Shown here piece by piece: positions 5,029 to 63,379 of a stretch of 64,000 nucleotides of DNA; within the stretch, counting starts at the first letter, position 1; every line of letters begins with the position of its first letter. The DNA comes from Corynebacterium sp. P4-C1 (GTDB taxonomy: Bacteria; Actinomycetota; Actinomycetes; Mycobacteriales; Mycobacteriaceae). The translations under genes were made by a program, and so were the position numbers. The notes beneath the pieces are model-generated. The model had not been told where the DNA came from, searched no databases, and saw nothing but the letters and a program-made list of their open reading frames with translations. The DNA lies in the NCBI RefSeq assembly GCF_030503595.1, contig NZ_CP129966.1, forward strand, positions 2,046,001 through 2,110,000, written 5' to 3'.

Positions 5029-6515
5029 TGGCTTCGCCGAGACCAGAGGTCGCCCCGGCGAAGGTTTCCCGCTTGGCCCCGACTCGGGTGCCCAGGTTCC
5101 GGCTGCGCACCCGGCTGCTCGTTATCCTCATGGTCATTTCCGGCTTGGGCTTGATGGGAATGTCCTTCGCTGTGTGGGGGCTGACGCGGGACCAGATGTA
5201 CGAGCAGGTGGATAAGGACCTGCGCAGAGGCTTGACGACGTGGGCTCTCAGCCCCGACATCCGCAGTTCCTCCCCGGACACGTATCTGCCCAGCCAGTAC
5301 ATCCTCATGACGGCGGTGCCGGGGCAACCGCCGCGCATCGACAATATCGGCGGCTGCTACCCGAGGTTGTCGGAGTTGGTGTTCGACCGGCGTCCCCGCA
5401 CTGTCGGCGCTGACTGCCTTTTCGACCAGAAGGAGGACCTGCGTTTCCGCGTGATCGCTGTGCAGGCGCCGGACGGCACGTCGACGGTGGTGGCTAAGTC
5501 GCTCGACCAAGAAAACGAGATGCTGGATGCGTTGGCGGCGGTGTTGGCGTCGATAAGCGTGCTTGTGCTGGGCATGATGGGCGCGGCCGGAACGTTCTTC
5601 GTGCGGCGCGCGCTGCTGCCGCTGAAGGATCTGGAGAATACCGCGCTGGCGATCGCCGACGGCAACATTGACTGCCGTGCGCCCGCGTGGCCACGCGACA
5701 CCGAGTTCGGGCGCTTGTCCTACGCGATGAACACGATGGTCAGCCAGCTGCAGGAGACTCTCGACGAGTCGCGGGCGAAAGAAGAGCAGATGCGGCGTTT
5801 CGTCGGCGACGCGTCGCACGAGCTGCGCACCCCGCTGACGAGCGTGCGCGGCTACACCGAGCTGTATCGTGCGGGCGCGACCGACGATGCGGACATGGTG
5901 CTCAGCAAGATCGACGAGGAGTCCGCCCGCATGAAGCTGCTGGTCGAGGATCTCCTGGCGCTCACCCGCGCGGAGGGAACGCGCTTGAACCTGCGCGAGG
6001 TGGATGTGCTCGAACTGGTGCTGTCGGTGAGCAGCTCCGCGCGCGCCGCTTTCCCCGGGCGTGTGCTGGCCGTCGAGAACGACGCCGAGGACATTCCACT
6101 CGTCTCCGGCGACCCCGACCGTCTCCACCAGGTGCTGCTGAACCTGGTCAGCAACGCGTTCAAGCACGCCGGCGACGATGCCGAGGTGACCATCAAGCTG
6201 CGCGGGTACCTGGACAACGTGTACATCGACGTCATCGATAACGGCTGCGGCATGGCCCCGGAGGACGCGGACCACATTTTCGAGCGTTTCTACCGCGCCG
6301 ACTCTTCCCGCAACCGCTCCAAGAGCGCCGGCGGCTCGGGGCTGGGGCTCGCGATCACGAAGTCCATCGTCGAGCAGCACGGCGGCGCAGTCACCGTGAT
6401 GTCCGCGCCGGGCAAGGGCTCCAAGTTCACGGTGAGCCTGCCCCGGATGCGTGTCGGTGGAGTCGGCGGTGCAGACGGTGCGGGTGGTTCTGCGGGTCAG
6501 CCGGATAAGGCTTAA
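5028..6515 (+). CDS. phoS: PhoS, phosphate-starvation sensor histidine kinase
   Basis: A 495-residue membrane kinase partnered with PhoR. The first transmembrane helix is near residues 29-50, followed by an extracytoplasmic loop with two cysteines (IGGCYP, ADCLF), a second helix near 166-193, then a HAMP linker (LPLKDLENTALAIADG). The H-box FVGDASHELRTPLTS places the phosphorylated histidine at 264; N, G1 and G2 ATP-binding boxes follow (LVSNAFKHA, DNGCGM, GGSGLGLAI). It starts one base inside the phoR stop. An in-frame copy of the repeated 11-mer at 5548-5558 uses an ATA codon. Confidence 0.93.
   Translation: MASPRPEVAPAKVSRLAPTRVPRFRLRTRLLVILMVISGLGLMGMSFAVWGLTRDQMYEQVDKDLRRGLTTWALSPDIRSSSPDTYLPSQYILMTAVPGQPPRIDNIGGCYPRLSELVFDRRPRTVGADCLFDQKEDLRFRVIAVQAPDGTSTVVAKSLDQENEMLDALAAVLASISVLVLGMMGAAGTFFVRRALLPLKDLENTALAIADGNIDCRAPAWPRDTEFGRLSYAMNTMVSQLQETLDESRAKEEQMRRFVGDASHELRTPLTSVRGYTELYRAGATDDADMVLSKIDEESARMKLLVEDLLALTRAEGTRLNLREVDVLELVLSVSSSARAAFPGRVLAVENDAEDIPLVSGDPDRLHQVLLNLVSNAFKHAGDDAEVTIKLRGYLDNVYIDVIDNGCGMAPEDADHIFERFYRADSSRNRSKSAGGSGLGLAITKSIVEQHGGAVTVMSAPGKGSKFTVSLPRMRVGGVGGADGAGGSAGQPDKA
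5548..5558 (-). repeat. 11-mer repeat copy 1
   Basis: CGTCGATAAGC on the + strand, inside phoS. It is read as gcG-TCG-ATA-AGC (Ala-Ser-Ile-Ser), a phase that differs from most other coding copies and requires the isoleucine codon ATA, which looks rare here. Confidence 0.85.
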
Positions 6516-6673
6516 GAGCGGCCTAGGTTGGGCTCGTTTGGGGGGCCATTTTTGGGGCCGGTGGATCTAGATTCCATTCGCCCGAGTCCCGCAGCTTGAA
6601 AGCCCAGGCCAGTTTTAGTTGCTCTAACAAAAAGTGAATCTAGATCCACGGAGCCCCGGCCCGTGTCTGGTGC
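6516..6673. repeat. convergent gap with 14-bp perfect inverted repeat
   Basis: GTGGATCTAGATTC at 6561-6574 is repeated in inverted orientation at 6636-6649 (GAATCTAGATCCAC), 61 bp apart. The right arm extends to a 16-bp near-palindrome, GTGAATCTAGATCCAC. A T-rich run lies outside the left arm (6549-6553) and an A-run lies just inside the right arm (6629-6633). It sits where phoS and the HIT gene converge, so it may act as a terminator, a pair of protein sites, or a small inserted repeat. I saw no clear target-site duplication. Confidence 0.7.
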
Positions 6674-7096
6674 CTAGCGGCGGCCGTCCTCGCCGGTGCC
6701 CAACTCCGCACGCAGTTTCGCGGCGGCGGCGTCCATTTCCGCGGCGTCGGTGTCGTCGGCGCGCATGATGTTCTGCAGGCTGTAGCCCGACATGTCGTTG
6801 GCGGGGAACACGTGGATGTGCGCGTGCGGAACCTCGAAACCGGCGATGAGGTAGCCAGCGCGCTCGGAATCGAACGCCTTGATCACGGCGTTGCCGATCT
6901 CCTGGGCGATCTCGTTGGCGTGCAGCCAGACCGCAGGGTCCAGGTCGGTCCACTTGTCCACCTCGGCGACCGGCACCACGAGCGTGTGGCCGTACGCGAT
7001 CGGCTCGATGGTCAAAAACGCGGCGACGGTCTCGTCGCGGTACACGAAACGGCCGGGGATCTCCCCGTTGATGATCTTGGTGAAGACTGTGCTCAT
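6674..7096 (-). CDS. HIT family nucleotide-binding hydrolase
   Basis: A 140-residue histidine-triad protein beginning [15 protein letters not shown]. The signature [12 protein letters not shown] supplies the HxHxH nucleotidyl-hydrolase motif. Members hydrolyse adenosine 5'-phosphoramidate-type or dinucleotide substrates; the real substrate cannot be read from the sequence. I chose start 7096 over the upstream in-frame ATG at 7135 because it matches the family N-terminus and because TACCCT (complement of 7105-7110) ends 8 nt before it. It is divergent from purD with 31 bp between the starts. Confidence 0.9.
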
Positions 7097-7127: not shown

Positions 7128-8396
7128 ATGCGCATCCTTGTGATCGGTTCGGGCGGCCGTGAACACGCCCTTCTCCATGCACTGGCAGGAACTGAAACTG
7201 ACCCGCACGAGCTTCACGCCGCGCCGGGCAACGCCGGTATGGCGCGCCTGGCGGAGCTGCACAGCCTCGACGTGACTAATGCCGGCGCGACTGTGGAGCT
7301 GGCGCAGTCCATCGGGGCGGACCTGGTGGTCGTGGGCCCGGAACAGCCCCTCGTCGCGGGAGTGACCGACGCTCTCCGGGAGGCCGGCTTCGCGGTCTTC
7401 GGGCCGTCTAAGGCCGCCGCGGCGCTGGAGGGCTCGAAGGCGTTCGCGAAGGATGTCATGGCCTCCGCCGGTGTGCGCACCGCCGATGCGCGCCAGGTGA
7501 CGGATGTCGCGGATGTCCCGGCCGCGCTCGACGCGTTCGGACCCAATTACGTGGTCAAGGACGATGGCCTGGCCGGCGGCAAGGGCGTCGTGGTCACCCC
7601 GGACCGCGCCGCGGCCCAGGCTCACGCCGAGGCGGTGCTGGCCGCCGGCAACCCGGTGCTGTTCGAGTCTTTCCTCGAAGGCCCCGAGGTCTCCCTGTTC
7701 TGCCTCGTGGACGGCGAGACCGTCGTGCCGCTGCTGCCCGCGCAGGATCACAAGCGCGCCTACGACAACGACGAGGGACCGAACACCGGCGGCATGGGCG
7801 CCTACACGCCGTTGCCGTGGTTGCCGGCGGACGGCGTGCAGCGCATTGTCGACGAAGTGGTTGCGCCCGTCGCCGCCGAGATGGTCCGCCGCGGCACGCC
7901 GTATTCGGGCCTCCTCTACGCCGGTTTGGCGTGGGGTGCCGAAGGCCCGGCCGTCGTCGAGTTCAACGCCCGTTTCGGCGACCCAGAGACGCAGGCCGTG
8001 CTCGCCCTGTTGGAGACCCCTTTCGCGGAGGTCCTCCATGCCACCGCGACCGGCACGCTGCACACCATCGGGCCGCTGGATTGGCGGGACGGGTTCGCGG
8101 TGACCGTCGTGCTCGCCGCCGAGGGGTACCCGGCCAACCCGCGCAAGGGCGACGTGATTACCGCCGCAGGCACGCTTATCGACGACGCCTCCCACGTCCT
8201 CCACGCCGGCACCTCCCGCGACGGCGACGCCTATGTGTCCGCCGGCGGCCGTGTGCTGAACATCCTCGGCACCGGGGCCACGTTGGAAGAGGCGGTGGAA
8301 GAGGCGTACGCCACCATCGGGAAGATCGATCTGGCCGGCTCGTTCTACCGCCGCGACATCGCCCGGCCCGCGATCGAGGGCACGATCACGGTCTAG
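7128..8396 (+). CDS. purD: PurD, phosphoribosylamine-glycine ligase
   Basis: A 422-residue ATP-grasp enzyme of purine step 2, joining glycine to phosphoribosylamine to make GAR. It starts with [15 protein letters not shown], the family N-terminus, and shows [15 protein letters not shown] (ATP-grasp), [20 protein letters not shown] (the PurD signature) and [13 protein letters not shown] (metal/ATP site). The long reading frame extends upstream, but ATG 7128 preceded by TACTAT at 7 nt is the convincing start; ATG 7119 is a weaker alternative. It heads the rightward purD-purB-purC series, in which each gene appears to have its own leaderless promoter. Confidence 0.97.
8174..8184 (+). repeat. 11-mer repeat copy 2
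   Basis: GCTTATCGACG inside purD, read as acG-CTT-ATC-GAC-G (Thr-Leu-Ile-Asp), near the C-terminus in a region without catalytic motifs. Confidence 0.85.
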
Positions 8397-9888: not shown

Positions 9889-10764
9889 ATGCGTCCAGAG
9901 CTTTCTGACTACAATCATCTCTCCGCCGGCAAGGTCCGCGAGATCTACGAGGTCGACGACGACACCTTGCTGATGGTCGCCACCGACCGTATTTCCGCGT
10001 TCGACTACGCACTTGAGCCGGAAATCCCGGACAAGGGCAAGATCCTCACCTACACCAGCGAGTTCTTCTTCGATCTGCTCGACGGGGTGCCCAACCACCT
10101 CGCGGGCCCGCTCGACGACGAGCGCATCCCGGAAGAAGTCCTCGGCAGCGCTTTCGTGGTGAAGAAGCTGGAGATGATCCCCTTCGAGTGCGTCGCCCGC
10201 GGCTACCTGACTGGGTCGGGCAAGAAGGAATACGACGCAAGCGGCGCTGTCTGCGGCGTCGCCCTGCCGGAGGGCCTGAAGGAAGCCTCGAAGCTGCCGG
10301 AGCCAATCTTCACTCCTGCCACGAAGGCGGAGCAGGGGGAGCACGACGAGAATGTGCGCTTCGAGTACGTCGTCAAGCATGTCGGTGAGGAGCTGGCTGA
10401 GAAGCTGCGCGCGACGACGCTGGACATCTACTCGCGTGCCGCGGAGTACGCGGAGACGCGCGGGATCATTCTGGCGGACACGAAGCTCGAGTTCGGACTC
10501 GATGCCGACGGCACGCTCGTGCTCGCCGACGAAGTCCTCACCCCCGATTCCTCCCGCTACTGGCCCGCGGACTCGTACGAGGAGGGCGAGAGCCAGCCGA
10601 GCTTCGACAAGCAGTACGTGCGCAACTGGCTGACGGGCCCGAAGTCGGGTTGGGACCCGAACGAGGGAACCCCGCCGCCGGAGCTGCCGGGCTCTGTCGT
10701 GGAGGCCACCCGCGACCGCTACATCGAGGCGTACGAGCGCCTGTCGGGCCGCAAGTTCGCTTAA
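9889..10764 (+). CDS. purC: PurC, SAICAR synthase
   Basis: A 291-residue phosphoribosylaminoimidazole-succinocarboxamide synthase that condenses CAIR with aspartate using ATP. The N-terminus [22 protein letters not shown], the substrate loop [11 protein letters not shown] and [13 protein letters not shown] are diagnostic. [10 protein letters not shown] and [13 protein letters not shown] form the second signature. TAACAT (9876-9881) ends 7 nt before the ATG, so this gene also looks leaderless despite lying 22 nt after purB. Confidence 0.96.
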
Positions 10765-10790: not shown

Positions 10791-12920
10791 ATGAGTGAAA
10801 CGCCCACAGCACCTGTAGCAGCGAAGCACCCGGTGACCCGCACCTTCCACGGTCGCGAGTTCACCGACGATTACGAGTGGTTGCGTGACAAGGAGTCGCC
10901 GGAAACGCTCGCTTATTTGGAGGCGGAGAACGCCTACACGAAGAAGCAGACGGCGCATCTCGATGGCTTGACGGAGACGATCTACAACGAGATCAAGTCC
11001 CGCGTGAAGGAGACGGACATGTCCGTCCCGCAGCGCCAGGGCGGCTGGTGGTACTACGGCCGCACGGAGGAGGGCAAGAATTACGGCATCAGCTGCCGCG
11101 TGCCTGTCGCGGACGGCAGTGACCCGTGGGCGCCACCGACACTTCCGGATGACGGTTCGGGGCTTCCGGGGGAGCAGGTCCTGCTCGATTTCAACGCTCT
11201 CGCCGGCGGCCACGAGTTCTTTTCGGTTGGCGCCTCGAGTGTCAGCATATCGGGCCGCTACCTGGCGTTCTCGACGGACACCACGGGCGACGAGCGCTTC
11301 GACCTCAAGGTCAAGGATCTCGAGACGGGGCAGCTGCTTGAAGATGCCATCCCCGGCGTTTTCTACGGCGCCACCTGGGCCGGTGAGGACCACCTGTTCT
11401 ACGTCCGTGTCGATGAGGCATGGCGCCCCTACCAGGTGTGGCGCCACACCCTGGGTTCCCCGGCCAGCGACGATGTGCTCGTCTACGAGGAGCCGGACGA
11501 GAAATTCGGCATCGGCGTGGGGGCGGACCGCTCCGAGAGCTACCTGATGATCGTCTCGGGGTCCTCTTTGACCACGGAGTGCCGGGTGCTGCCGGTGGAC
11601 ACCCCTGAGGGGGACTTCGAGGTGCTCTGGCCGCGTGAGGCGGGAGTGGAGTACACCGTTGATTACGCCGTGGTCGACGGCCAGGCGAATTGGGTGGTCA
11701 CGCACAACGCGCACGGCCCCAACTCGTCGGTGGCAGTGTGCCCGGTGCCGGCGGAGGGCCAGGATTTGCCGCCGCTGCGTGAGCTGGCCGAGCTCCTGCC
11801 GCACGACGAGGAGGTGCGCATCGAGGGCACCGACTCCTACCGCGACTTCCTCTTCGTCGCCTACCGCCGGGGCGGGATCGGGCGTCTCGCGGTGGCGGAC
11901 CTCGCCGGCGGCATCGGTGAGTTCCGGGAACTCGAATTCGACGAGGAGCTCTACACCGCAGGTCTGGTCGGCAACCCGGAATGGGACGCGCCGGTGGTGC
12001 GCATCAGCTACACCTCATTCACCCAGCCCGCCCAGGTGCTCGACTACCGGGTCGCCACCGGCGAGCTCACCCTGCTGAAGGAGCAGGAGGTCCGCGGCGG
12101 ATACAACCCGGCCGACTACGTCGCCGAGCGCATGTGGGCCACGGCCGAGGACGGCACGAAGGTGCCGATGTCGGTGGTGCGGAGGGCGGATGCGGACGTC
12201 GATAAGCCTGCTCCCTGCTTGCTGTACGGTTACGGGTCCTATGAGGCCTCGACGGATCCCGGGTTCTCCGTCGCGCGGCTGAGCCTGCTCGACCGTGGCA
12301 TGGTGTGGGTGTGCGCGCACGTGCGCGGCGGCGGGGAGATGGGCCGCCTGTGGTACGACAACGGCAAGATGCTGAAGAAGAAGAACTCGTTCAGAGACTT
12401 CGTGGCCTGCGCCGACGCGCTTATCGACGAAGGCCTCACCACCCCGTCCCTCCTCGTCGCCGAAGGCGGCTCCGCCGGCGGTCTGCTCACGGGCGCTGTC
12501 GCGAACCTCGCGCCGGAGAAATTCGCCGGCATTCAGGCCATCGTGCCGTTCGTCGATCCGCTGACCTCGATTTTGAAGCCGGAGCTGCCGCTGACCGTCG
12601 GCGAGTGGGAGGAATGGGGCGACCCGTACCACGACCCGGAGGTCTACGACTACATGGCGGCCTACGCGCCGTACGAGAACGTGGAAGCGAAGGATTACCC
12701 TGATATTCTCGCGGTGACCAGCCTCAACGACACCCGTGTGCTCTACGTCGAGCCCGCGAAGTGGATCGCGAAACTGCGGGCCACGGCCACCGGTGGGCAG
12801 TTCCTGCTCAAAACTGAGATGGCTGCTGGTCACGGCGGTGTCTCCGGGCGTTACGCCAAGTGGAAACAGACCGCGTTCGAGTACGCGTGGACCCTGACCA
12901 CAGCAGGTGCCGTGAAATAA
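10791..12920 (+). CDS. ptrB: S9 family oligopeptidase (PtrB-like)
   Basis: A 709-residue serine peptidase of the prolyl-oligopeptidase family, cytoplasmic (no signal peptide), that cuts short peptides. An N-terminal beta-propeller part is followed by an alpha/beta-hydrolase domain with the nucleophile elbow EGGSAGG at Ser561. DTRVLYVEPAKW contains the region of the catalytic Asp, and AGHGGVSGRY near the end supplies the catalytic His. ATG 10791 is preceded at 8 nt by TACGAT (10777-10782). The gene follows purC as in C. glutamicum, where the neighbour is annotated as protease II. Two 11-mer repeats lie inside it. Specificity (basic residues versus proline) was not determined. Confidence 0.9.
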   Translation: MSETPTAPVAAKHPVTRTFHGREFTDDYEWLRDKESPETLAYLEAENAYTKKQTAHLDGLTETIYNEIKSRVKETDMSVPQRQGGWWYYGRTEEGKNYGISCRVPVADGSDPWAPPTLPDDGSGLPGEQVLLDFNALAGGHEFFSVGASSVSISGRYLAFSTDTTGDERFDLKVKDLETGQLLEDAIPGVFYGATWAGEDHLFYVRVDEAWRPYQVWRHTLGSPASDDVLVYEEPDEKFGIGVGADRSESYLMIVSGSSLTTECRVLPVDTPEGDFEVLWPREAGVEYTVDYAVVDGQANWVVTHNAHGPNSSVAVCPVPAEGQDLPPLRELAELLPHDEEVRIEGTDSYRDFLFVAYRRGGIGRLAVADLAGGIGEFRELEFDEELYTAGLVGNPEWDAPVVRISYTSFTQPAQVLDYRVATGELTLLKEQEVRGGYNPADYVAERMWATAEDGTKVPMSVVRRADADVDKPAPCLLYGYGSYEASTDPGFSVARLSLLDRGMVWVCAHVRGGGEMGRLWYDNGKMLKKKNSFRDFVACADALIDEGLTTPSLLVAEGGSAGGLLTGAVANLAPEKFAGIQAIVPFVDPLTSILKPELPLTVGEWEEWGDPYHDPEVYDYMAAYAPYENVEAKDYPDILAVTSLNDTRVLYVEPAKWIAKLRATATGGQFLLKTEMAAGHGGVSGRYAKWKQTAFEYAWTLTTAGAVK
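12197..12207 (-). repeat. 11-mer repeat copy 3
   Basis: CGTCGATAAGC on + inside ptrB, read gaC-GTC-GAT-AAG-C (Asp-Val-Asp-Lys). It is only 212 bp from the next copy, which lies in the opposite orientation. Confidence 0.85.
12419..12429 (+). repeat. 11-mer repeat copy 4
   Basis: GCTTATCGACG inside ptrB, read gcG-CTT-ATC-GAC-G (Ala-Leu-Ile-Asp), about 40 bp before the nucleophile-elbow coding region. Confidence 0.85.
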
Positions 12921-16778: not shown

Positions 16779-16843
16779 TGTCTGATCAAACCACTGCTGA
16801 AAATCGATTTCAATCGTGGGGGCCTGCGCAAGGGCAGGCGTCG
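16779..16843 (-). promoter_or_regulatory. Zur-like box in the znuA-znuC gap
   Basis: TGAAAATCGATTTCA at 16798-16812 has 5-bp inverted arms (TGAAA/TTTCA) and matches the actinobacterial Zur operator pattern TGAAAAnnnTTTTCA at most positions. It lies 20 nt upstream of the znuC start. Confidence 0.55.
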
Positions 16844-34967: not shown

Positions 34968-34996
34968 TCGCTATTGCTTGTCGACGCTCTCCCGCG

Positions 34997-41036: not shown

Positions 41037-41047
41037 GCTTATCGACG
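41037..41047 (+). repeat. 11-mer repeat copy 12 (intergenic)
   Basis: GCTTATCGACG directly after the T-run of the tRNA terminator, preceded by CATTTT. Confidence 0.85.
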
Positions 41048-43972: not shown

Positions 43973-43973
43973 G

Positions 43974-43984
43974 CGTCGATAAGC
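43974..43984 (-). repeat. 11-mer repeat copy 13 (intergenic)
   Basis: CGTCGATAAGC on +, between the cysK stop and the hairpin. Read on the minus strand it is preceded by CATTTTCC, similar to copy 12. Confidence 0.85.
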
Positions 43985-47470: not shown

Positions 47471-47481
47471 GCTTATCGACG
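47471..47481 (+). repeat. 11-mer repeat copy 15 (intergenic)
   Basis: GCTTATCGACG 28 bp after murA, preceded by GCATTC. It is the last copy before the rRNA operon, which contains none. Confidence 0.85.
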
Positions 47482-53521: not shown

Positions 53522-54286
53522 GTGGGTAGGCATTCGGTTGAGGGGAGCGTCGATAAGCGGAATGCTCCCGCGGCTCGCGCAGTGACTTTGGTGAAAACCT
53601 ACGGCTCCGGCGACACAAAGGTCACGGCTCTGGATGGTGTGAGCGTGGAATTTGCGCGCAAGGAGTTCACCGCGATTATGGGGCCGAGCGGTTCGGGCAA
53701 ATCGACGTTGATGCACACGATGGCTGGCTTGGACTCCTTCGATTCCGGCTCGGTGGAGATCGGTGAGACGGATCTGGCGGCCCTGAACGAGAAGCAGTTG
53801 ACGGCGCTGCGCCGCGATCGGCTCGGCTTCATTTTCCAGTCTTTCAACCTCGTGCCCACGCTCACGGCGGAGGAGAACATCACCTTGCCGACGGATATCG
53901 CAGGTGGCCGGGTCGACCGCGAGTGGTTCGAGGAGATCACGCAGCGCCTCGGATTGTCGCACCGTCTCGGGCACCGTCCCAGCGAGCTCTCCGGTGGCCA
54001 GCAGCAGCGTGTGGCGTGCGCGCGTGCCTTGGTGTCGCGCCCGGAGATCATTTTTGGCGACGAGCCGACGGGCAACCTTGATTCTAATTCCTCGCGCGAA
54101 GTGCTGGACATTCTGCGCACGGCTGTGGATCGCGACGGGCAGACCGTCGTGATTGTCACGCACGATGCTCGCGCGGCGTCCTACGCCGACCGTGTTGTCT
54201 TCCTCGCGGACGGCAATATCGTCAATGAGCTGCGGAACCCTACGATGGAGGAGATCCTCGCAACGATGAACGGCATCGAGGGCTGA
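53522..54286 (+). CDS. ABC exporter ATPase (LolD/MacB type)
   Basis: 254 residues with Walker A GPSGSGKST, Q-loop FIFQSFNL, signature [14 protein letters not shown], Walker B IIFGDEPTGNLDS and switch His IVTHD. The DEPTGNLDS form is typical of the type VII (MacB/LolD/FtsE) ATPases that work with FtsX-like permeases rather than importers. TAGAAT (53475-53480) is a good -10 giving a leader of about 35 nt. The partner permease begins one base inside the stop. Substrate unknown. Confidence 0.9.
   Translation: MGRHSVEGSVDKRNAPAARAVTLVKTYGSGDTKVTALDGVSVEFARKEFTAIMGPSGSGKSTLMHTMAGLDSFDSGSVEIGETDLAALNEKQLTALRRDRLGFIFQSFNLVPTLTAEENITLPTDIAGGRVDREWFEEITQRLGLSHRLGHRPSELSGGQQQRVACARALVSRPEIIFGDEPTGNLDSNSSREVLDILRTAVDRDGQTVVIVTHDARAASYADRVVFLADGNIVNELRNPTMEEILATMNGIEG
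53548..53558 (-). repeat. 11-mer repeat copy 16
   Basis: CGTCGATAAGC on + near the start of the ABC ATPase gene, read agC-GTC-GAT-AAG-C (Ser-Val-Asp-Lys) within the first 13 codons, ahead of the folded domain. Confidence 0.85.
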
Positions 54287-56844
54287 TGGCGGGCGCAATG
54301 ACCAAGGTGTCTGTGCGCAATCTTCGCGCGCACAGGCTTCGCCTCGCTCTCACGGTGCTGGCTGTGGTGCTCGGCACCGCGTTCATTTCGGGCTCGTTGA
54401 TGTTCACGAACATGCTCGAGCGAACTTTCGATTCAGCGGTAGCAAGCGAGTACGACGCCGTCGATGTGGCGGTCAAGCCCGCTGAGGGCAAACAGGTGCT
54501 GCCGGTCGAGGTACGTAACGAGTTCGCGGCTGATCCGCAGGTGGACCGCGTCAATATCGACGGTTCCGAGTTGGTGGTCGTGGCGGATGCCGGCGCTAAC
54601 GCGATCCAGACGGGCGGCGGCGAGTCCCGCGTGGGGCTCTACTACCCCGACGACCAGATTGTGGGCCAGCCGTTCCAGATCACGGACGGCGCGGCCCCGT
54701 CGAAAGTGGGGGAGGCGCTGCTGAACGCCGCGGGGGCGGAGCACTACGGCATCGCTGTCGGCGACGAAGTGATCGTCGCGGACGCGGAGGGCCGCAACAC
54801 GATGAGGGTCACTGGCCTGTACACGGATGAGCTCGACCAGGGCATGTCGCTCATGCTCAAAGTGCCGGAAAGCGCGTTTGTGGAGTACTACACCGACGGC
54901 AAGTACGTGCCTGGTCTCACGCTCACTGCAGCGGACCCAACGACGGGGCAGCAGCTCGCCGAGCACGTGTCCGCGCAGCACAGCGACCTCACCGTCAAGG
55001 AAGGCTCCGTGCTTGCCGACGAGCTGTCCAAGCAAGTCCGCGATGCTCTCAGCTTCATCGGGTATTTCCTCACCGCCTTCGGTCTTGTCGGCCTGTTGGT
55101 GGGAACGTTCCTGATCGCGAATACGTTCTCCATGATCGTTGCGCAGCGCACGAAGGAGTTCGCGCTGCTGCGTGCGCTGGGGGCGTCGAAGGGCCAGATC
55201 ACTCGTTCGGTCGTGGCGGAAGCGTTGATTGTCGGGGTGCTGGGGTCGGCGTTGGGCGTTGTCGCTGGCGCTGGTCTCGTCGCCGTTATCCGGGCGGTGA
55301 TGGATTCCCGCGGGATGGGCTTGCCGGGTGCCGGTTGGGGTCTGTCCGCGGGGGCTGTTGTAGTGCCGGTTGTTGTCGGCGCCGTTGTGACGGTTCTGTC
55401 CGCATGGGCGCCGGCGAGGCGTGCCGGCCGGGTCCAACCGGTGGAAGCGATGCGCTCGGGCGAGTCGGCCGCGCCGCAACCGCTCGTGGCGCGCACCGTC
55501 GTGGGGGTGATGCTGCTCGCGGCCGGCGGCGGTCTGCTTGCGTGGGGCGTGATGTGGGAGGACGGCTCGACGGGCCGTCGAGCCGCGCTGGTCGGCGCGG
55601 CCGCGGTGCTCGTGATCGTGGGGCTGTTCCTCGCTGGTCCGGCGCTCTCGCTGCCGGTCGTCCCGGTGCTCGGGCGCATTGCGGGGGCTCCGTTCGGGGC
55701 GGTCGGTTCTCTGGCCGCGACGAACTCGAAGCGCAATCCGCGACGCGCCTCAGCGACGGCATTCGCGTTGATGCTCGGTGTCGCGCTGGTCACGGCGATC
55801 GGCATGCTCGGAGCGACGATGGAACGCTCAGTCGACGACGTGTTGGAAAACGAGGTCGACGCGGAGATGGTCCTCTACGGCCCGCAGTTGGGCGCGTTCC
55901 CGATCCCGAACGACTTGCCGGACAGGATTCCAGGCGTCGAGGGCGTGGGTGAAACTGTCACCTACACGCAGTCGCGGGTGACGGTGAACGGGGAGTTCGG
56001 CAACCAGTTCGGCCCGGTCGGTGCTACAGATGTCGTCGAGGGGGACCCCGGCAAGCTGGTCAAGCTCAGCATGACGGAAGGCACGTCTTCGCTTATCGAC
56101 GGCGGCGTTCTCCTCCCCGCCTCCCTCGCCGCCGAGAAGAATGTCTCCGTCGGCGACTCCGTGACCCTCGCGATGCCGGGGTGGGCAGGCGCCCCGGAGA
56201 CCCAGGCGACGGTGAAGGGATTATTCGAGGACTCGAATATTTTCTCGTCGTGGGTCGTGTCGCGGAAGTCGCTGGAGCAGATCAAGTCGCCGGAGAGCTT
56301 CAAGGTGCTCATGGTCGGCGTGAACGGTGACGGGACAGTCACGGAGGACGAGCTGCGCTCCCGCCTCGAGGATGCGGTGCACGACGACATTGTGGTGCAG
56401 GTCCGCTCCCCGGAGGATCTCGGCGGGGAAGCCCAGCAGATGATCAACCAGATGCTCTACATCCTCTACGCGTTGCTGTCCTTGGCGGTGGTGATCGCGG
56501 TGCTGGGCATCATCAACACGCTGACGTTGTCGGTGATTGAGCGCCGCCAGGAGATCGGCATGCTGCGCGCGGTGGGCACCCAGCGCGGCCAGGTGCGCAC
56601 CATGATCATTCTGGAGTCGGTGCAGATCGCGGTCTTCGGCGCGCTTTTGGGTGTCGGGGCTGGCCTGCTGCTGGGCTGGTCCTTCCTGACTGTCTTGGCA
56701 GACAAGGGGCTGGAGAGTATGGCCTACCCGTGGTCGATGATCGCCGGCATGCTCGCCGCCTCCGTCGTCGTCGGTATTGTAGCGGCGCTCCTGCCTGCCC
56801 GGCGCGCGGCGAAGACTCCGCCGCTGGACGCCATCGCGGAATAG
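54286..56844 (+). CDS. FtsX-like ABC permease
   Basis: 852 residues with the large two-FtsX-domain layout: a first helix near 15-37, an extracytoplasmic MacB-like domain (VAVKPAEGKQVLPVEVRNEF...), three helices around 260-365, a further helical pair around 405-460, a second periplasmic-type domain, and three C-terminal helices ending in ALLPARRAAKTPPLDAIAE, the usual cytoplasmic tail motif. Family members export lipids, peptides or act as mechanotransmitters; no substrate can be read here. ATG 54286 overlaps the ATPase stop (TGATG). Confidence 0.9.
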   Translation: MAGAMTKVSVRNLRAHRLRLALTVLAVVLGTAFISGSLMFTNMLERTFDSAVASEYDAVDVAVKPAEGKQVLPVEVRNEFAADPQVDRVNIDGSELVVVADAGANAIQTGGGESRVGLYYPDDQIVGQPFQITDGAAPSKVGEALLNAAGAEHYGIAVGDEVIVADAEGRNTMRVTGLYTDELDQGMSLMLKVPESAFVEYYTDGKYVPGLTLTAADPTTGQQLAEHVSAQHSDLTVKEGSVLADELSKQVRDALSFIGYFLTAFGLVGLLVGTFLIANTFSMIVAQRTKEFALLRALGASKGQITRSVVAEALIVGVLGSALGVVAGAGLVAVIRAVMDSRGMGLPGAGWGLSAGAVVVPVVVGAVVTVLSAWAPARRAGRVQPVEAMRSGESAAPQPLVARTVVGVMLLAAGGGLLAWGVMWEDGSTGRRAALVGAAAVLVIVGLFLAGPALSLPVVPVLGRIAGAPFGAVGSLAATNSKRNPRRASATAFALMLGVALVTAIGMLGATMERSVDDVLENEVDAEMVLYGPQLGAFPIPNDLPDRIPGVEGVGETVTYTQSRVTVNGEFGNQFGPVGATDVVEGDPGKLVKLSMTEGTSSLIDGGVLLPASLAAEKNVSVGDSVTLAMPGWAGAPETQATVKGLFEDSNIFSSWVVSRKSLEQIKSPESFKVLMVGVNGDGTVTEDELRSRLEDAVHDDIVVQVRSPEDLGGEAQQMINQMLYILYALLSLAVVIAVLGIINTLTLSVIERRQEIGMLRAVGTQRGQVRTMIILESVQIAVFGALLGVGAGLLLGWSFLTVLADKGLESMAYPWSMIAGMLAASVVVGIVAALLPARRAAKTPPLDAIAE
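56091..56101 (+). repeat. 11-mer repeat copy 17
   Basis: GCTTATCGACG in the permease gene, read tcG-CTT-ATC-GAC-G (Ser-Leu-Ile-Asp) in an extracytoplasmic segment. Confidence 0.85.
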
Positions 56845-57350: not shown

Positions 57351-57703
57351 GGGGCTACCTCGGGTGAGCGGCGGCGTCGAAAAGCGTCCCCGAGCTCCCA
57401 CGCCGCGACCGCGACGAGCATGGTGCCGGCCATGTAGATGAGCGCCACGTAGGCGCTGGACTGCATCGCCAGGAACGACACGGCGGAGAAAGTGGTGAAG
57501 CCGCCGATCATGCCGCGGCCCCAGAACGGGCCCGGGTCGAAGCGGCCCATGAGGAAGCAGCCGATGAAGTTGATCACGAAGACGACGATGATCTCCGACG
57601 GCGGTTCCGGTGCCATCAGCGGCGTGAACGCGAAACGGGCGAGCGCGCCGAATGAAGCGCCGAACCCGATCGCGAGACCGTCCTTGAGTGCTGAACCAAC
57701 CAC
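57347..57703 (-). CDS. crcB: CrcB/Fluc fluoride channel subunit, partner
   Basis: 118 residues from GTG 57703. Motifs: GFGASFGALARFAFT, VFVINFIGCFLMGRF and MIGGFTTFSAVSFLAM, all Fluc-type. The start is uncertain: the frame is open far upstream, GTG 57721 is possible, and I favoured 57703 because TACCGT lies 6 nt before it in the pattern seen across the window and because the length fits the family. I saw no recognisable fluoride riboswitch before it. Confidence 0.8.
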   Translation of the reverse strand: MVGSALKDGLAIGFGASFGALARFAFTPLMAPEPPSEIIVVFVINFIGCFLMGRFDPGPFWGRGMIGGFTTFSAVSFLAMQSSAYVALIYMAGTMLVAVAAWELGDAFRRRRSPEVAP

Positions 57704-57857: not shown

Positions 57858-59516
57858 ATGGCGCACACGAGGGCTGGCCAACCAGCACTTCCCCAGGACT
57901 TGATCGATATCGCGGAGGTGGTCACCGCCTACTACACGCGCGATATCGACGCCGCCGATCCGGACCAGCAGGTGTCCTTCGGCACGTCGGGGCACCGCGG
58001 GTCCAGCCTGGACAACGCGTTCAACCAGCAGCATATCTGGGCGACGACGCAGGCGATTGTGGACTACCGCCGCGAGATTTCGATCGGCGGGCCGGTCTAC
58101 ATCGGCCGCGACACGCACGCGCTTTCGGAGCCGGCGATGGTCTCCGCTCTCGAGGTCCTCATCGCCAACGATATCGCAGTGCTTGTCGACGCCGCCGGGC
58201 GCTACACGCCGACCCCCGCCGTCTCCCACGCCATCCTGGCGCACAACGCGAAGTTGTCCGGTGGCGTGACCGGCACGGACCCGAAGCGCGCCGACGGCAT
58301 TGTGATCACACCGTCGCACAATCCGCCGCGCGACGGCGGCTTCAAATACAACCCACCGTCGGGCGGTCCGGCCGACACCGACGCGACGGACTGGATTGCC
58401 AAACGCGCGAACGCCTACCTGGCTGGCGGCCTCGAAGGCATCAACCGCACCCCGGTCAGCGGCGTGCTTGACGACCGGGCTGGCAAGCACCCGTTCATGG
58501 ACAACTACATCGCGGATCTGCCGAATGTTCTGGATCTCGACGCGGTCCGCTCTGCCGGCCTGCGCATCGGTGCCGACCCGATGGGCGGGGCTAGCGTCGA
58601 CTACTGGGGTGCGATCGCCGACGCCCACAAGCTCGACCTGACGGTGGTGAACCCTGAGGTGGACGCGACGTGGCGGTTCATGACGCTGGACACCGACGGC
58701 AAGATCCGCATGGACTGCTCCTCGCCGAATTCCATGGCGAGCCTGGTGGCAGGCCGCGACAAGTACGACATCGCCACCGGCAACGACGCGGACGCGGACC
58801 GCCACGGCATCGTCACCCCGGACGCCGGTCTGATGAACCCGAACCACTACCTCGCTGTGGCCATCGAGTACCTGTTCAGCCACCGCGACGGCTGGGGCAG
58901 CGGCACTGAAGTGGGCAAGACCCTGGTGTCTTCGTCGATGATCGACCGCGTCGTGGCCTCCCTCGGCCGGACGCTGGTGGAAGTGCCAGTCGGCTTCAAG
59001 TGGTTTGTGCCCGGTTTGATCGACGGCTCCATCGGCTTCGGCGGCGAAGAGTCCGCCGGCGCCTCCTTCCTGCGCAAAGACGGTACCGTGTGGTCGACCG
59101 ACAAGGACGGCCTGATCATGGATCTGCTCGCCGCGGAAATCACCGCCGTGACAGGGAAGACGCCCTCGCAGCGCTACGCCGAGCTGGAGCAGGAATTCGG
59201 CGCTCCCGTCTACGCCCGTACCGACGCTGAGGCGAACCGTGAGCAGAAGGCCATCTTGAAGAAGCTTTCCCCGGACCAGGTCACCGCGACCACGCTGGCC
59301 GGCGACGAGATCACAGCCAAGCTCACCGAGGCCCCCGGCAACGGCGCCGCCATCGGTGGGCTAAAGGTCACCACCGATAATGCCTGGTTCGCTGCCCGCC
59401 CATCCGGCACGGAGGACAAGTACAAGATCTACGCCGAATCCTTCAAGGGCAGGGAGCACCTCGAGCAGGTGCAGAAGGAAGCCCAGGACGTCGTTAGCGG
59501 AGTGCTCGGCAACTAG
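57858..59516 (+). CDS. pgm: Pgm, alpha-D-phosphoglucomutase
   Basis: A 552-residue enzyme interconverting glucose-1-phosphate and glucose-6-phosphate, feeding glycogen, UDP-glucose and thus trehalose synthesis. The active serine is S153 in [26 protein letters not shown] is the metal loop and [12 protein letters not shown] the sugar loop; the phosphate site [15 protein letters not shown] is near the end. Length is normal for the E. coli Pgm subgroup. Confidence 0.96.
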
Positions 59517-59591: not shown

Positions 59592-60116
59592 GTGACAACA
59601 AAGCATGACACCAAGGTTGACGAGGCAGCGCTGACGGAGGAAGAAGCTCTGGACGGGGCGGGGGAGACGTCGACAAGCGGGCGCGTACTCGACGTGTTCT
59701 CCGCGCTGGCGCGCTTCGGGCTGGCGGCCGTGTGGATTTTCGCGGGCGCGACGAAGCTCGGCAACCACATGACCGTGACGCAGAGCATCGAAGCCTACGA
59801 GATCTTCACTCCGTACTGGTCGAGCCTGCTCGCCAGCATCATCGGTCCCGCTGAGCTCGCCGGCGGGCTCATCCTGCTGCTGGGCATCAAGATCCGTCCT
59901 GCGGGCTGGGTGTCGTTCGGCGTGCTCGTGCTGTTCGTCATCGGGCTTTCGTCCTCGTACAGCCGCGGCCTGCAGATCGACTGCGGCTGTTTCGGACCCG
60001 ATCCGGACAGTGCCGGCGGCGACCTGCTGTGGGCGATCGCCCGCGATGTAGGCCTGATCGCCGTGACGTTGTTCATGATCTACCGTCCGTTTAAGAAATT
60101 CGCGCTGTACCCGTAG
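59592..60116 (+). CDS. MauE/DoxX family membrane protein
   Basis: 174 residues with four hydrophobic helices (ARFGLAAVWIFAGATKLG ... FVIGLSSSYSRGLQIDCGCFG). The CGCFGPDP cysteine pair is typical of MauE-like proteins that accompany disulfide oxidoreductases. GTG 59592 was chosen because TACAGT (59579-59584) ends 7 nt upstream; the frame continues back to 59529. The DsbA-like gene follows 48 nt later, and the two probably cooperate in redox folding outside the membrane. Confidence 0.85.
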   Translation: MTTKHDTKVDEAALTEEEALDGAGETSTSGRVLDVFSALARFGLAAVWIFAGATKLGNHMTVTQSIEAYEIFTPYWSSLLASIIGPAELAGGLILLLGIKIRPAGWVSFGVLVLFVIGLSSSYSRGLQIDCGCFGPDPDSAGGDLLWAIARDVGLIAVTLFMIYRPFKKFALYP

Positions 60117-60164: not shown

Positions 60165-60932
60165 GTGAGTTCCTCTTCCAAGCCCACGACCACGAAGGGC
60201 TCGACGAAGGTCGCTAACCCCAATTCCTCCGGCGGCAAGGGCTTCTGGTGGGCCCTCGGCGCACTGATTCTCATCGGCGCCCTGGTGATCGGTTTGATCG
60301 TCTACAACGGTCGCGGTGCGCGCGCCGACCGCCTCGCGGAGAATATGGAGAATGTCGACGGAGTCACCATGGAGTTCTCCGATAACACCATCACCCTCGC
60401 GGGCGAGAACGCCGACGGGGCCAAGGAAGCGAGCCTTTACGAGGACTTCGCCTGCCACTACTGCGCGGACCTGGCCACGAAGTCGGACGCCGAGATGCTC
60501 GAGAAGATCAAGTCCGGTGAGCTGAAGGTGCACATCCACCCGATGGTCTTCCTCGACGGGACTGGCCAGAAGTACAACAAGGGCTACTCCACGCAGGCCT
60601 TGGCGGCGACCCTCGCGCTGGCCGACAAGGGCGATGTCGCGGCGTACTGGAACATGCGCAAGGTCCTCCTCGAAGAGCAGCAGAGCCTGTATTCGAGCTC
60701 CGACAACAACTCCCTGGCTGACACGGCGAAGGACTTCGGTGCCTCCAAGGACGCCGTCCAGGCGATCCGTGACGGCGAGTACGAGGACAAGGCGAAGGAG
60801 CTCGGCGAAGCTAATGAGAAGGACCTCGTCGACAAGACCGGTGAGCTTTCCTCCCCGCACGTGCTTGTCGACGGCAAGGATGTCGAATCCAACCCCCTCG
60901 AAAAGTGGATCGACGACCTTCTCGCTAGCTAA
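60165..60932 (+). CDS. DsbA-like membrane-anchored thioredoxin-fold protein
   Basis: 255 residues: a short basic cytoplasmic lead, one membrane helix (about 27-47), and an extracytoplasmic thioredoxin domain with the active-site pair C97-H-Y-C100 (LYEDFACHYCADL) and the cis-proline region SSPHVLVDG. It resembles actinobacterial DsbA/MdbA-type oxidases. CxxC dipeptide HY is slightly unusual (E. coli DsbA has PH). Confidence 0.88.
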   Translation: MSSSSKPTTTKGSTKVANPNSSGGKGFWWALGALILIGALVIGLIVYNGRGARADRLAENMENVDGVTMEFSDNTITLAGENADGAKEASLYEDFACHYCADLATKSDAEMLEKIKSGELKVHIHPMVFLDGTGQKYNKGYSTQALAATLALADKGDVAAYWNMRKVLLEEQQSLYSSSDNNSLADTAKDFGASKDAVQAIRDGEYEDKAKELGEANEKDLVDKTGELSSPHVLVDGKDVESNPLEKWIDDLLAS

Positions 60933-61698: not shown

Positions 61699-62458
61699 TG
61701 CAGACGTGTTCGTGAAGCACGGAAGCGCTCCGGGGGCCGCGGCGGCCGAAGCAGCCTATCTGCGCTGGCTGCGGGAAGGCTCCCGCGCGGTTGTGGAGGT
61801 CCTCGACCTCGACGAGGAGGCGAACACGGTCACGATCGAGCGCGTCGCCAGCGCCCGGCCCACCGCCGCTGCCGCAGCGGAAGCAGGCCGCGAGCTCGCC
61901 GCGATTCACGCGATGGGCGCGGACGCGTTCGGGGCGCCGGCGGACGGCTGGGAGGGCCCGAATTTCATCGGCCGTGCCGAGCAGGAATGCACGCCGACGG
62001 CGCGGTGGGCGGAGTTCTACACCGCGCAGCGGGTCATGCCGTTCGCGGAGAAGGCCCACCGCAGCGGGAATCTCGGTGCGGAAGGGTTGGACACGGTCAA
62101 GCGGGCGTGCGAAGCGCTCGTCGCCGAGGACGAAGACGCGCCTCTCGCGCGCATTCACGGCGACCTCTGGGCCGGCAACCTGCTGTTCTCCACCACCGGC
62201 CCGCGGTTCATCGACCCGGCGGCGCACGGCGGCCACCCGCTCACCGACATCGCGATGCTCGAGCTCTTCGGCGCACCGCACCTAAGCGCGCTTATCGACG
62301 GCTACCTCGCCACCGGAGCCACCCTCGGCAGGGGCTGGGACACCCGCATTCCCATCCACCAGCTCCACCCGCTCGCAGTCCATGCCTACACGCACGACCC
62401 GAGTTACGGATCCGCCCTGGTCCGCGCTGCGGAGGAGACGTTGCGCACCATCGGTTAG
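61691..62458 (+). CDS. fructosamine kinase family protein
   Basis: 255 residues of the aminoglycoside-phosphotransferase-like fold. LARIHGDLWAGNLLFS is the catalytic loop, and RFIDPAAHGGHPLTDIAML is the metal/ATP segment, where the usual D-P-A-x-Y-G-H becomes DPAAHGGH. Fructosamine kinases phosphorylate sugar adducts on amines so that they fall off (deglycation). ATG 61691 lies inside the ogt stop region. Physiological substrate unknown. Confidence 0.85.
   Translation: MSNADVFVKHGSAPGAAAAEAAYLRWLREGSRAVVEVLDLDEEANTVTIERVASARPTAAAAAEAGRELAAIHAMGADAFGAPADGWEGPNFIGRAEQECTPTARWAEFYTAQRVMPFAEKAHRSGNLGAEGLDTVKRACEALVAEDEDAPLARIHGDLWAGNLLFSTTGPRFIDPAAHGGHPLTDIAMLELFGAPHLSALIDGYLATGATLGRGWDTRIPIHQLHPLAVHAYTHDPSYGSALVRAAEETLRTIG
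62290..62300 (+). repeat. 11-mer repeat copy 18
   Basis: GCTTATCGACG in the fructosamine kinase gene, read gcG-CTT-ATC-GAC-G (Ala-Leu-Ile-Asp). Copy 19 lies 297 bp away in inverted orientation. Confidence 0.85.
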
Positions 62459-62494
62459 GCCACGCGGCTTTGGCTGGCGGGGGTGCGGAGGCCC

Positions 62495-63379
62495 CTAGAG
62501 CCACCACGTTTCGGCCGGGCCGGGCGGCAGATGGCGCTTGTGCTGGCCGACGGCCCAGAGATGCTCGAGGCGGGCGGCGGCGGTGGCGTCGATAAGCGCG
62601 CCCTCGAGGTAGTCGTCGATCTGGGCGTAGGTGACGCCTAGCGCCTCTTCGTCGGGAAGCGCGGGCCGGTCTTCTTCGAGGTCGGCGGTGGGGACCTTCT
62701 CGTAGAGGCGCTTATCCGCCTCGAGGTGGGCGAGGAGCTGCGCGCCCTGGCGTTTGTTCAATCCCGCGAGGGGGATGAGATCGGCCGCGCCGTCGCCGAA
62801 CTTAGTGAAGAACCCGGTGAGGTTCTCCGCCGCGTGGTCAGTGCCGATAACGAGGAGTCCAAGCTCGCCCGCGATCGCGTACTGGGCGGTCATACGCATG
62901 CGGGCTTTGACGTTGCCCTTGTTGAAGTCGCCGAGCTTGCCGCGGTCGAGGCTGTCGGCCACCTGGCTGGCGAGCGCGGTCGTCGCCGGCTCGATATTCA
63001 CCGTGACGCGTTTGTCGGGCTGGATGAAGTCGAGGGCGAGCTGCGCGTCATCCTCATCCGCCTGCACACCGTGGGGGAGACGCACTGCGACGAACGTGGC
63101 CTCCCGGCCCTGCTCGCGGGTCTTCTCCACAGCCATCTGCGCCAATTTGCCCGCTAGTGTCGAGTCCTGGCCGCCCGAGATGCCGAGGACGAAGCCCTTC
63201 GCGCCGGTCTTTTCCAGGTAGTCGACGAGGAAGTCCACGCGCCGGGCGATCTCGCCGGCGGGCGCGATGAACGGTTTCACGTCGAGCGCCGCGATGATTT
63301 CCTGCTGCGTTGCGCCGATAGCGTCATGGGAGGGGTGTTCGGGCAAGTTGTCGGAAGTGGTGCCGGACTCGTGAGACAT
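62495..63379 (-). CDS. nadE: NadE, ammonia-dependent NAD synthetase
   Basis: A 294-residue enzyme that amidates nicotinate adenine dinucleotide with ammonia and ATP. The ATP-pyrophosphatase P-loop is [67 protein letters not shown] and [20 protein letters not shown] are the family blocks. No glutaminase domain is fused. TACGAT (complement of 63387-63392) ends 7 nt before ATG 63379. Confidence 0.95.
62587..62597 (-). repeat. 11-mer repeat copy 19
   Basis: CGTCGATAAGC on +, near the nadE 3' end; on the coding strand it reads gcG-CTT-ATC-GAC-G (Ala-Leu-Ile-Asp). Confidence 0.85.

What the first reader, a model, noticed from the sequence alone, without database searches (positions are those of the whole stretch)
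5548..62597. Over-represented 11-mer GCTTATCGACG, 19 exact copies on both strands
Seen directly: GCTTATCGACG on + at 8174, 12419, 25913, 36966, 39555, 41037, 47471, 56091, 62290; its complement CGTCGATAAGC on + at 5548, 12197, 20219, 26954, 28855, 35632, 43974, 46839, 53548, 62587. At roughly 62% G+C I would expect about 0.03 copies of a given 11-mer in 64 kb on both strands. Density is about one per 3.4 kb; orientation is balanced 9:10, so it is not a polar KOPS or Chi-type signal over this range. Four of 19 copies are intergenic. Known analogues in other groups are DNA-uptake sequences, HIP1-like repeats and nucleoid or replication-protein sites. I know of no assigned reader for this motif in Corynebacterium. 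If the density holds, a genome would carry several hundred copies.
Basis: partly seen in the sequence, partly recalled or inferred. Interest (0 to 1): 0.85.

Follow-up and report, generated by a model that had tools for sequence, protein, structure and literature searches.

The report
Uptake-like DNA tags across Corynebacterium
A short DNA tag with a C-rich tail is scattered through the chromosomes of many Corynebacterium species in lineage-specific spellings, and it looks like the self-recognition tags that two families of Gram-negative bacteria use when taking up DNA, although uptake has not been tested here.

Summary
A synonymous-codon shuffle predicts 3 copies in sampled coding DNA against 67 observed.

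The element is an oriented composite of about 44 bp: GCTTNNCGACG plus a ~33-nt C-rich, G-poor tail on the same strand. The tail accompanies sense, antisense and intergenic copies, so it is read as DNA.

Of 151 Corynebacterium genomes, 110 carry the general form at 5 or more times the reversed control. Lineages use different spellings (GCTTATCGACG, GCTTGYCGATG, GMTTGACGACG). GCTTATCGACG is not enriched in 113 same-family genomes outside the genus. No site was found in about 76 kb of prophage DNA in three carriers. The sample shows no replication polarity.

Best explanation (confidence 0.65): a DNA uptake signal, convergent with the USS of Pasteurellaceae and the DUS of Neisseriaceae, read during natural transformation through the Tad pilus/ComEA/ComEC machinery. 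That machinery is encoded across the genus, including genomes without the motif. Uptake is untested, the receptor is unknown, and no pilin change that tracks the dialect was found.

The parts
5548..5558 (-). exact core GCTTATCGACG; C-rich tail 5515-5547
   Evidence: tail C/G 16/5
8174..8184 (+). exact core; tail 8185-8217
   Evidence: tail C/G 20/5
12197..12207 (-). exact core; tail 12164-12196
   Evidence: tail C/G 18/6
12419..12429 (+). exact core; tail 12430-12462
   Evidence: tail C/G 18/6
20219..20229 (-). exact core; tail 20186-20218
   Evidence: tail C/G 18/4
25913..25923 (+). exact core; tail 25924-25956
   Evidence: tail C/G 17/7
26954..26964 (-). exact core; tail 26921-26953
   Evidence: tail C/G 19/7
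28855..28865 (-). exact core; tail 28822-28854
   Evidence: tail C/G 18/8
35632..35642 (-). exact core; tail 35599-35631
   Evidence: tail C/G 16/7
36966..36976 (+). exact core; tail 36977-37009
   Evidence: tail C/G 19/2
39555..39565 (+). exact core; tail 39566-39598
   Evidence: tail C/G 15/9
41037..41047 (+). exact core, intergenic, directly after a terminator-like hairpin and T run (seen by eye); tail 41048-41080
   Evidence: tail C/G 19/3
43974..43984 (-). exact core, intergenic; tail 43941-43973
   Evidence: tail C/G 16/5
46839..46849 (-). exact core; tail 46806-46838
   Evidence: tail C/G 17/5
47471..47481 (+). exact core, intergenic; tail 47482-47514
   Evidence: tail C/G 13/4
53548..53558 (-). 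exact core; tail 53515-53547
   Evidence: tail C/G 17/3
56091..56101 (+). exact core; tail 56102-56134
   Evidence: tail C/G 19/8
62290..62300 (+). exact core; tail 62301-62333
   Evidence: tail C/G 15/10
62587..62597 (-). exact core; tail 62554-62586
   Evidence: tail C/G 17/9
572..582 (+). variant core GCTTGTCGACG
   Evidence: tail C/G 15/4
974..984 (-). variant core GCTTCTCGACG; may be a chance match
   Evidence: tail C/G 12/10
1550..1560 (-). variant core GCTTGACGACG
   Evidence: tail C/G 12/5
5230..5240 (+). variant core GCTTGACGACG
   Evidence: tail C/G 15/7
10368..10378 (-). variant core GCTTGACGACG
   Evidence: tail C/G 14/6
16313..16323 (-). variant core GCTTGCCGACG
   Evidence: tail C/G 17/4
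16839..16849 (-). variant core GCTTAACGACG
   Evidence: tail C/G 14/7
17287..17297 (+). variant core GCTTGTCGACG
   Evidence: tail C/G 18/5
22561..22571 (+). variant core GCTTGCCGACG
   Evidence: tail C/G 15/10
29609..29619 (+). variant core GCTTGACGACG
   Evidence: tail C/G 21/7
32906..32916 (+). variant core GCTTTTCGACG; may be a chance match
   Evidence: tail C/G 12/10
34332..34342 (+). variant core GCTTCTCGACG
   Evidence: tail C/G 13/8
34976..34986 (+). variant core GCTTGTCGACG
   Evidence: tail C/G 15/7
37289..37299 (+). variant core GCTTTACGACG
   Evidence: tail C/G 14/2
37712..37722 (-). variant core GCTTGCCGACG
   Evidence: tail C/G 15/10
39287..39297 (-). variant core GCTTGACGACG
   Evidence: tail C/G 17/3
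46710..46720 (+). variant core GCTTGCCGACG
   Evidence: tail C/G 15/9
47090..47100 (+). variant core GCTTCCCGACG, no C-rich tail; may be a chance match
   Evidence: tail C/G 11/13
55011..55021 (+). variant core GCTTGCCGACG
   Evidence: tail C/G 11/8
57375..57385 (-). variant core GCTTTTCGACG
   Evidence: tail C/G 17/7
58181..58191 (+). variant core GCTTGTCGACG
   Evidence: tail C/G 18/9
59668..59678 (-). variant core GCTTGTCGACG
   Evidence: tail C/G 18/5
60863..60873 (+). variant core GCTTGTCGACG
   Evidence: tail C/G 10/7
62650..62660 (-). variant core GCTTCCCGACG; may be a chance match
   Evidence: tail C/G 11/10

Best explanation
The motif is the core of a DNA uptake signal sequence used in natural transformation. 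SHOWN: an oriented ~44-bp element (GCTTNNCGACG in this species, then ~33 nt C-rich and G-poor on the same strand) is spread over the chromosome in both orientations, inside and between genes; other lineages of the genus use other spellings; the prophage stretches examined lack it; the genus encodes the Actinobacterial Tad pilus locus, ComEA and ComEC. INFERRED: a surface or pilus component binds the core in environmental DNA; the strand-asymmetric tail helps the next step (bending, melting or strand choice before ComEC passes one strand); and because tagged fragments are taken up and recombined preferentially, tagged alleles accumulate by molecular drive, changing synonymous codons and some amino acids.
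For: Abundance on both strands beyond composition and codon models. Tail: mean C minus G over 33 nt is 9.29 for 41 sense copies (same-gene null 0.76, sd 0.66), 10.88 for 25 antisense copies (null -0.20, sd 0.79) and 8.2 for 11 intergenic copies; at 4-fold sites in the tail C:G is 287:17 (sense) and 111:14 (antisense, motif strand), against 4414:3467 and 2342:3293 elsewhere in the same genes. The tail ends near +44 and recurs clearly in six other sampled genomes of dialects A and B, and more weakly in two. Dialects by lineage: 8 of 151 genomes have 294-508 GCTTGYCGATG copies, and 7 of those 8 have 13 or fewer GCTTATCGACG; in a TadA tree of 35 rows these 8 fall in one clade of 9. GCTTATCGACG is not enriched in 113 same-family genomes outside the genus (maximum 7). 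No site in about 76 kb of prophage DNA. The motif has raised Leu-Ile-Asp to 73 (34.6 expected) and Val-Asp-Lys to 44 (21.9). Tad, ComEA and ComEC are encoded. Known USS are a 9-nt core plus downstream AT-rich tracts extending to 32 nt, with dialects following phylogeny (PMC12616744 section 3).
Against: No uptake experiment, and the listings of my paper searches showed no report of natural transformation in Corynebacterium. Presence of Tad, ComEA and ComEC does not separate carriers from non-carriers: ComEC is over the cut-off in 151 of 151, TadA in 142, ComEA in 143. No fixed A/B difference was found in the Tad pilins or ComEA. Inverted pairs, described as common for known DUS/USS, are not in excess: 17 close pairs against about 16 expected. 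The tail is weaker in G149 and weak in G048. Absence from prophages also fits other chromosomal signals, and the prophage-bearing stretches are lower in G+C (0.52-0.58).
Confidence: 0.65

Rival explanations
1. The site is read inside the cell by a chromosome maintenance factor (recombination hotspot, repair nuclease regulator or nucleoid organiser), which could explain the oriented single-strand bias of the tail.
For: Genome-wide spread, strand asymmetry and absence from the prophage DNA examined fit such a signal.
Against: No co-orientation with replication in the sample (37:44), unlike Chi or KOPS as recalled. Dialect shifts inside one genus and counts below 3.5 times the control in 36 of 151 genomes would be odd for an essential chromosomal signal.
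Confidence: 0.2
2. The motif is a self-marker that protects resident or incoming DNA from a nuclease or defence system rather than a surface uptake signal.
For: Present in chromosome, absent from the prophage DNA examined; oriented signal.
Against: No such system was looked for or identified. The core-plus-tract form resembles known USS more closely.
Confidence: 0.08
3. An RNA-level element, such as a Rho loading site or part of a terminator, since C-rich G-poor RNA resembles rut sites (recalled).
For: C-rich tail; an intergenic copy at 41037 follows a terminator-like hairpin; one inverted pair folds to -31.9 kcal/mol.
Against: Of 228 sites in the own samples 132 are sense, 67 antisense, 27 intergenic and 2 at gene edges, with 11% of the sample non-coding; the tail follows the motif strand even in antisense copies.
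Confidence: 0.04
4. Codon usage, peptide composition or a dispersed mobile repeat produces the count.
For: Most coding copies lie in one frame, reading Leu-Ile-Asp or Val-Asp-Lys.
Against: Synonymous shuffle mean 3.11 against 67; reversed control 2 against 493; no shared longer sequence around copies except the compositional tail and a preference for C at -1.
Confidence: 0.01

Closest known systems
Uptake signal sequences (USS) of Pasteurellaceae (Hin and Apl types)
   Same: Hundreds to thousands of copies; short core with downstream flanking tracts (USS up to 32 nt; here core plus ~33 nt); lineage dialects.
   Different: Unrelated core; C-rich, G-poor tail instead of AT-rich tracts; Gram-positive host with a Tad pilus; uptake and receptor not shown.
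DNA uptake sequences (DUS) of Neisseriaceae, read by the minor pilin ComP
   Same: Dialects that follow phylogeny with an invariant part; enriched genome-wide; A and B spellings largely exclusive between lineages here.
   Different: DUS are continuous motifs to about 13 nt; no ComP counterpart identified here; inverted pairs are not in excess here.
Chi and KOPS (polar chromosome signals; properties recalled)
   Same: Short over-represented oriented words.
   Different: No replication polarity seen here.
HIP1 of cyanobacteria (properties recalled)
   Same: Highly over-represented short word spread over the chromosome.
   Different: HIP1 is a palindrome; this core is not and the element is oriented.

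Membership tests
DNA uptake signal sequences (USS/DUS) | Strong genome-wide over-representation of a short motif on both strands | tested here: met
   245 + 248 copies, control 1 + 1; general form at 5 or more times the control in 110 of 151 genomes
DNA uptake signal sequences (USS/DUS) | Within-family dialects with a conserved part, following phylogeny | tested here: met
   Three spellings sharing G-TT--CGA-G; 8 B genomes lie in one clade of a TadA tree with one non-carrier (G014), while A is not one clade there (G029 apart); one gene tree, not a core-genome tree; A and GMTTGACGACG grade into each other
DNA uptake signal sequences (USS/DUS) | Flanking tract extending the core (USS type) | tested here: met
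   C-rich, G-poor tail from +11 to about +44; weaker in G149, weak in G048
DNA uptake signal sequences (USS/DUS) | Absent or rare in recently acquired mobile DNA | tested here: met
   0 sites in about 76 kb of prophage DNA in five loci of three genomes; in two of these loci all 16 sites lie outside the phage genes; borders set by me after seeing the sites
DNA uptake signal sequences (USS/DUS) | Frequent inverted pairs acting as terminators | tested here: inconclusive
   17 close pairs against about 16 expected among 776 sites; 8 are in the hairpin-forming order reverse-then-forward; one folds well
DNA uptake signal sequences (USS/DUS) | Natural competence machinery encoded | tested here: met
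   TadA 142, ComEC 151, ComEA 143 of 151 over cut-off; also in non-carriers; DprA not searched
DNA uptake signal sequences (USS/DUS) | Preferential uptake of motif-bearing DNA | not testable with these tools
   needs live competent cells
DNA uptake signal sequences (USS/DUS) | Specific receptor protein | tested here: inconclusive
   Fixed A/B differences: 0 in eight Tad-locus proteins and ComEA, 1 in ComEC, 7 in the HolA control (6-7 A and 7-8 B genomes)
Chi / KOPS | Co-orientation with replication (recalled) | tested here: not met
   37 against 44 in the 424-kb sample
HIP1 | Palindromic word (recalled) | tested here: not met
   Core is not its own reverse complement; the two sides of the element differ in composition

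The most novel reading that the evidence does not exclude
A third, independently evolved system of self-specific DNA uptake, the first in a Gram-positive and Actinobacterial lineage. It runs through a Tad-type pilus, has several dialects within one genus, and uses a ~44-bp oriented signal whose C-rich, G-poor tail makes recognition strand-specific.
Probability: 0.6. Interest if true: 0.95.

Novelty: new variant of a known kind. Interest (0 to 1): 0.9.

Why it matters
[quoted passage not shown] A comparable signal in Corynebacterium would be a third independent origin, would imply that much of this genus is or was naturally transformable, would explain barriers to gene exchange between its species, and gives a new phylogenetic contrast for finding how uptake receptors and dialects co-evolve. 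It also suggests a genetic tool: adding the tag to DNA may make hard-to-transform commensal species accessible.

Tried and rejected
Codon or dipeptide artefact: rejected by the synonymous-codon shuffle. Replication-polar signal: not seen in the sample. Mobile repeat: no longer shared sequence around copies. Presence of TadA, ComEC or ComEA as the difference between carriers and non-carriers: rejected, nearly universal; note that TIGR03819 also rings below its cut-off in most of the control genomes (13 of 14 ring, 1 over the cut-off). ComEC open-frame length first looked like a marker of non-carriers; gene calls at 24 comE loci (output partly cut) show a ComEC of ordinary short length also in non-carriers G014 (568 aa) and G062 (493 aa), so I dropped it. 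Dialect-tracking residues: none useful; HolA, a housekeeping control, has the most fixed A/B differences (7), so such differences reflect phylogeny. Inverted-pair excess: not found. Hidden dialects: sampled by enriched words and C-tail in only 8 low-count genomes (G014, G132, G133, G084, G066, G147, G128, G148) with no clear one; weak TCGACG or CGACGCC enrichment in G132, G133, G066 and G148 is left open; the other low-count genomes (such as G041, G062, G120, G129) were not sampled for this, so other spellings there are possible. Corynebacterium plasmids as a mobile-DNA control: dropped after the hit list because host dialects were unknown; no plasmid was fetched.


Full report
WHAT WAS CLAIMED AND WHAT IS THERE. 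All 19 copies of GCTTATCGACG are present at the stated places. The genome holds 493 copies, 245 forward and 248 reverse, against 2 for the reversed pattern. In a 424-kb sample (window plus 18 stretches of 20 kb) the motif is the top-scoring 11-mer, 81 copies against 1.34 expected from a fourth-order Markov model. A within-gene synonymous-codon shuffle gives a mean of 3.11 and a maximum of 8 against 67 in coding sequence. The word uses the rare leucine codon CTT (7.4% of Leu codons), yet 37 of 73 Leu-Ile-Asp are coded CTT-ATC-GAC.

THE ELEMENT IS LARGER THAN THE WORD. Aligning 81 copies shows a C-rich, G-poor stretch from +11 to about +44, 3' of the core on the same strand. It appears whether the motif lies on the sense strand (41 copies), the antisense strand (26; 25 used in the test) or between genes (11) by my own gene calls. 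Against random positions in the same genes and frame, the excess of C over G is 9.29 versus 0.76 (sd 0.66) for sense and 10.88 versus -0.20 (sd 0.79) for antisense. Fourfold-degenerate sites in the tail are C:G 287:17 (sense) and 111:14 (antisense, read on the motif strand), while the rest of the same genes has 4414:3467 and 2342:3293. The selection or drive therefore acts on DNA. The fifth and sixth bases vary: GCTTNNCGACG variants also carry the tail, for example GCTTGACGACG (12 copies, mean 10.3), GCTTGCCGACG (16, 8.2) and GCTTTTCGACG (21, 7.5), while GCTTGTCGACG (32, 5.7) and GCTTCTCGACG (22, 3.7) are weaker. In other genomes the tail dips near +17 to +22 and rises again near +23, which may be a helical-turn pattern; this is inference. 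Intergenic exact copies also prefer G at -9/-8 and pyrimidines just before the core (30 copies).

DIALECTS. In 151 Corynebacterium genomes GCTTATCGACG ranges from 0 to 686 copies. Word discovery in low-copy genomes found GCTTGCCGATG and GCTTGTCGATG in G006, GCTTGTCGATG and GCTTGACGATG in G111, and GMTTGACGACG in G048. Whole-genome counts of GCTTGYCGATG are 294-508 in 8 genomes and 66 or fewer in the other 143; of those 8, 7 have 13 or fewer GCTTATCGACG and one (G143) has 45. GMTTGACGACG reaches 481 in G113, which has 2 GCTTATCGACG; several genomes carry both, such as G016 (266 and 299) and G069 (324 and 106), so these two spellings grade into one another. The general form GMTTNNCGAYG is at 5 or more times its reversed control in 110 of 151 genomes and below 2 in 27, with 14 between. 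The 114 genomes at 3.9 times or more are balanced between strands. Outside the genus, 113 genomes of the same family have at most 7 copies of GCTTATCGACG; other spellings were not searched there. In a TadA tree of 35 rows the 8 B-dialect genomes fall in one clade of 9 that also holds a non-carrier, G014; six non-carriers and C. variabile (motif not counted) form another deep clade; the dialect-A genome G029 lies apart from the other A genomes. Support is partial and it is one gene.

TAIL IN OTHER GENOMES. Among 776 sites in nine genomes, the tail is clear in own, G122, G029, G144, G053, G006 and G111, weaker in G149, and weak in G048. Site density is 0.24 to 0.79 per kb.

MOBILE DNA. Terminase hits (PF03354) occur in 9 of 151 genomes, 8 over the cut-off. 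I fetched 20 kb at five of these places in three carriers, one of them a hit just under the cut-off. Three loci (L244, L246, L247) have portal and tape-measure genes and hold no site of either the exact or the GCTTNNCGACG form. L243 has a recombinase, terminase, portal and head gene (1464-10756) and L245 a terminase and head gene (up to 6503); their 16 GCTTNNCGACG sites all lie outside these. With wider borders that I drew first, an even spread gives probability 2.7e-5; with the borders at the last recognised phage gene it is about 3e-4 (hand arithmetic). In all five loci together exact copies were 4 against 8.8 expected, and the 4 lie outside the phage genes. Weaknesses: borders were set after seeing the sites, and these stretches have lower G+C (0.52-0.58).

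MACHINERY. The own genome has a Tad locus with TadA (TIGR03819), the Ssd homologue (TIGR03815), a TadE-like protein (TIGR03816), a second TadE-like protein whose NF041390 match is below the cut-off, a Flp-like and TadB/C-like proteins without an NCBIfam family over cut-off (named by position and likeness), the neighbouring helicase (TIGR03817), and a comEA-comEC-holA operon. TadA is over the cut-off in 142 of 151 genomes, ComEC in 151 and ComEA in 143. The machinery is therefore compatible with transformation but does not explain who carries the motif.

MECHANISM. In USS-bearing Pasteurellaceae a short core is followed by tracts reaching 32 nt that are thought to help melting and kinking, and dialects follow phylogeny (PMC12616744, section 3 read; PMC3630211 and PMC7811141, passages seen). 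The Corynebacterium element has this plan with unrelated letters. The best reading is convergent evolution of a self-uptake signal. Shown: anatomy, spread, dialects, absence from the prophage DNA examined, presence of machinery. Inferred: binding by a surface component, a role for the tail in opening or strand choice, and accumulation by biased uptake and recombination. Not shown: competence itself. An intracellular chromosome or repair function remains the main rival. One passage of PMC1939737 recalls that roles in termination and in replication, repair or compaction were also proposed for the known uptake sequences.

LITERATURE. Eight searches of the held open-access library (two returned nothing) showed in their listings no paper describing this motif or an uptake sequence in Corynebacterium; listings were capped at 10 to 20 rows. 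One search found the 11-mer string only in two unrelated papers, seen as listings. Most subscription papers and all bioRxiv preprints are not covered. Natural transformation in the Actinobacterium Micrococcus luteus is reported (PMC6667448, PMC8467076; starts of abstracts seen).

Noticed in passing
L090 348-2544; L092 8334-9999; L093 8359-10000; L101 2-1387; L094 1292-2158: Near comEA-comEC-holA in several B-dialect genomes, and in the related non-carrier G014, sit genes absent from that place in the seven dialect-A loci seen. In L090 they are a D12-class adenine DNA methylase (PF02086) and a protein with DUF6996, DUF6997 and DUF7226; the others were judged by eye.
   Followed up: partly
L094 (G138) and L086 (G114): comEA/comEC look truncated in G138 and comEC is short and split in G114, although both genomes carry hundreds of sites; this could be recent loss of competence or assembly error.
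   Followed up: no
L071-L074 (G133): A palindrome GATGCACGTGCATC (about 17 copies in 80 kb) and CCGAAGCCGGGC (11 copies) form a different repeat family in G133, a low-count genome.
   Followed up: no
L047, L049-L057 (G147, G128): GGACGCC/GGCGTCC is about 2.5-3 times over-represented in two non-carrier genomes.
   Followed up: no
L209 2288-2323: An inverted pair of the motif between genes in G122 folds into a strong hairpin (-31.9 kcal/mol, z -5.9), like the terminator pairs of known uptake sequences.
   Followed up: partly
L012 9029-10213: Transposase-like gene in a site-free 20-kb stretch of the own genome; 99.6% identical DNA lies on a C. jeikeium plasmid, annotated there as an IS256-like IS3503 family transposase.
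   Followed up: partly
L046, L047, L057, L062, L121, L122: One deep clade of non-carriers has a strongly diverged Tad locus: a distinct or unrecognised TadE-like pilin and TadB- and TadC-like regions in one reading frame.
   Followed up: partly
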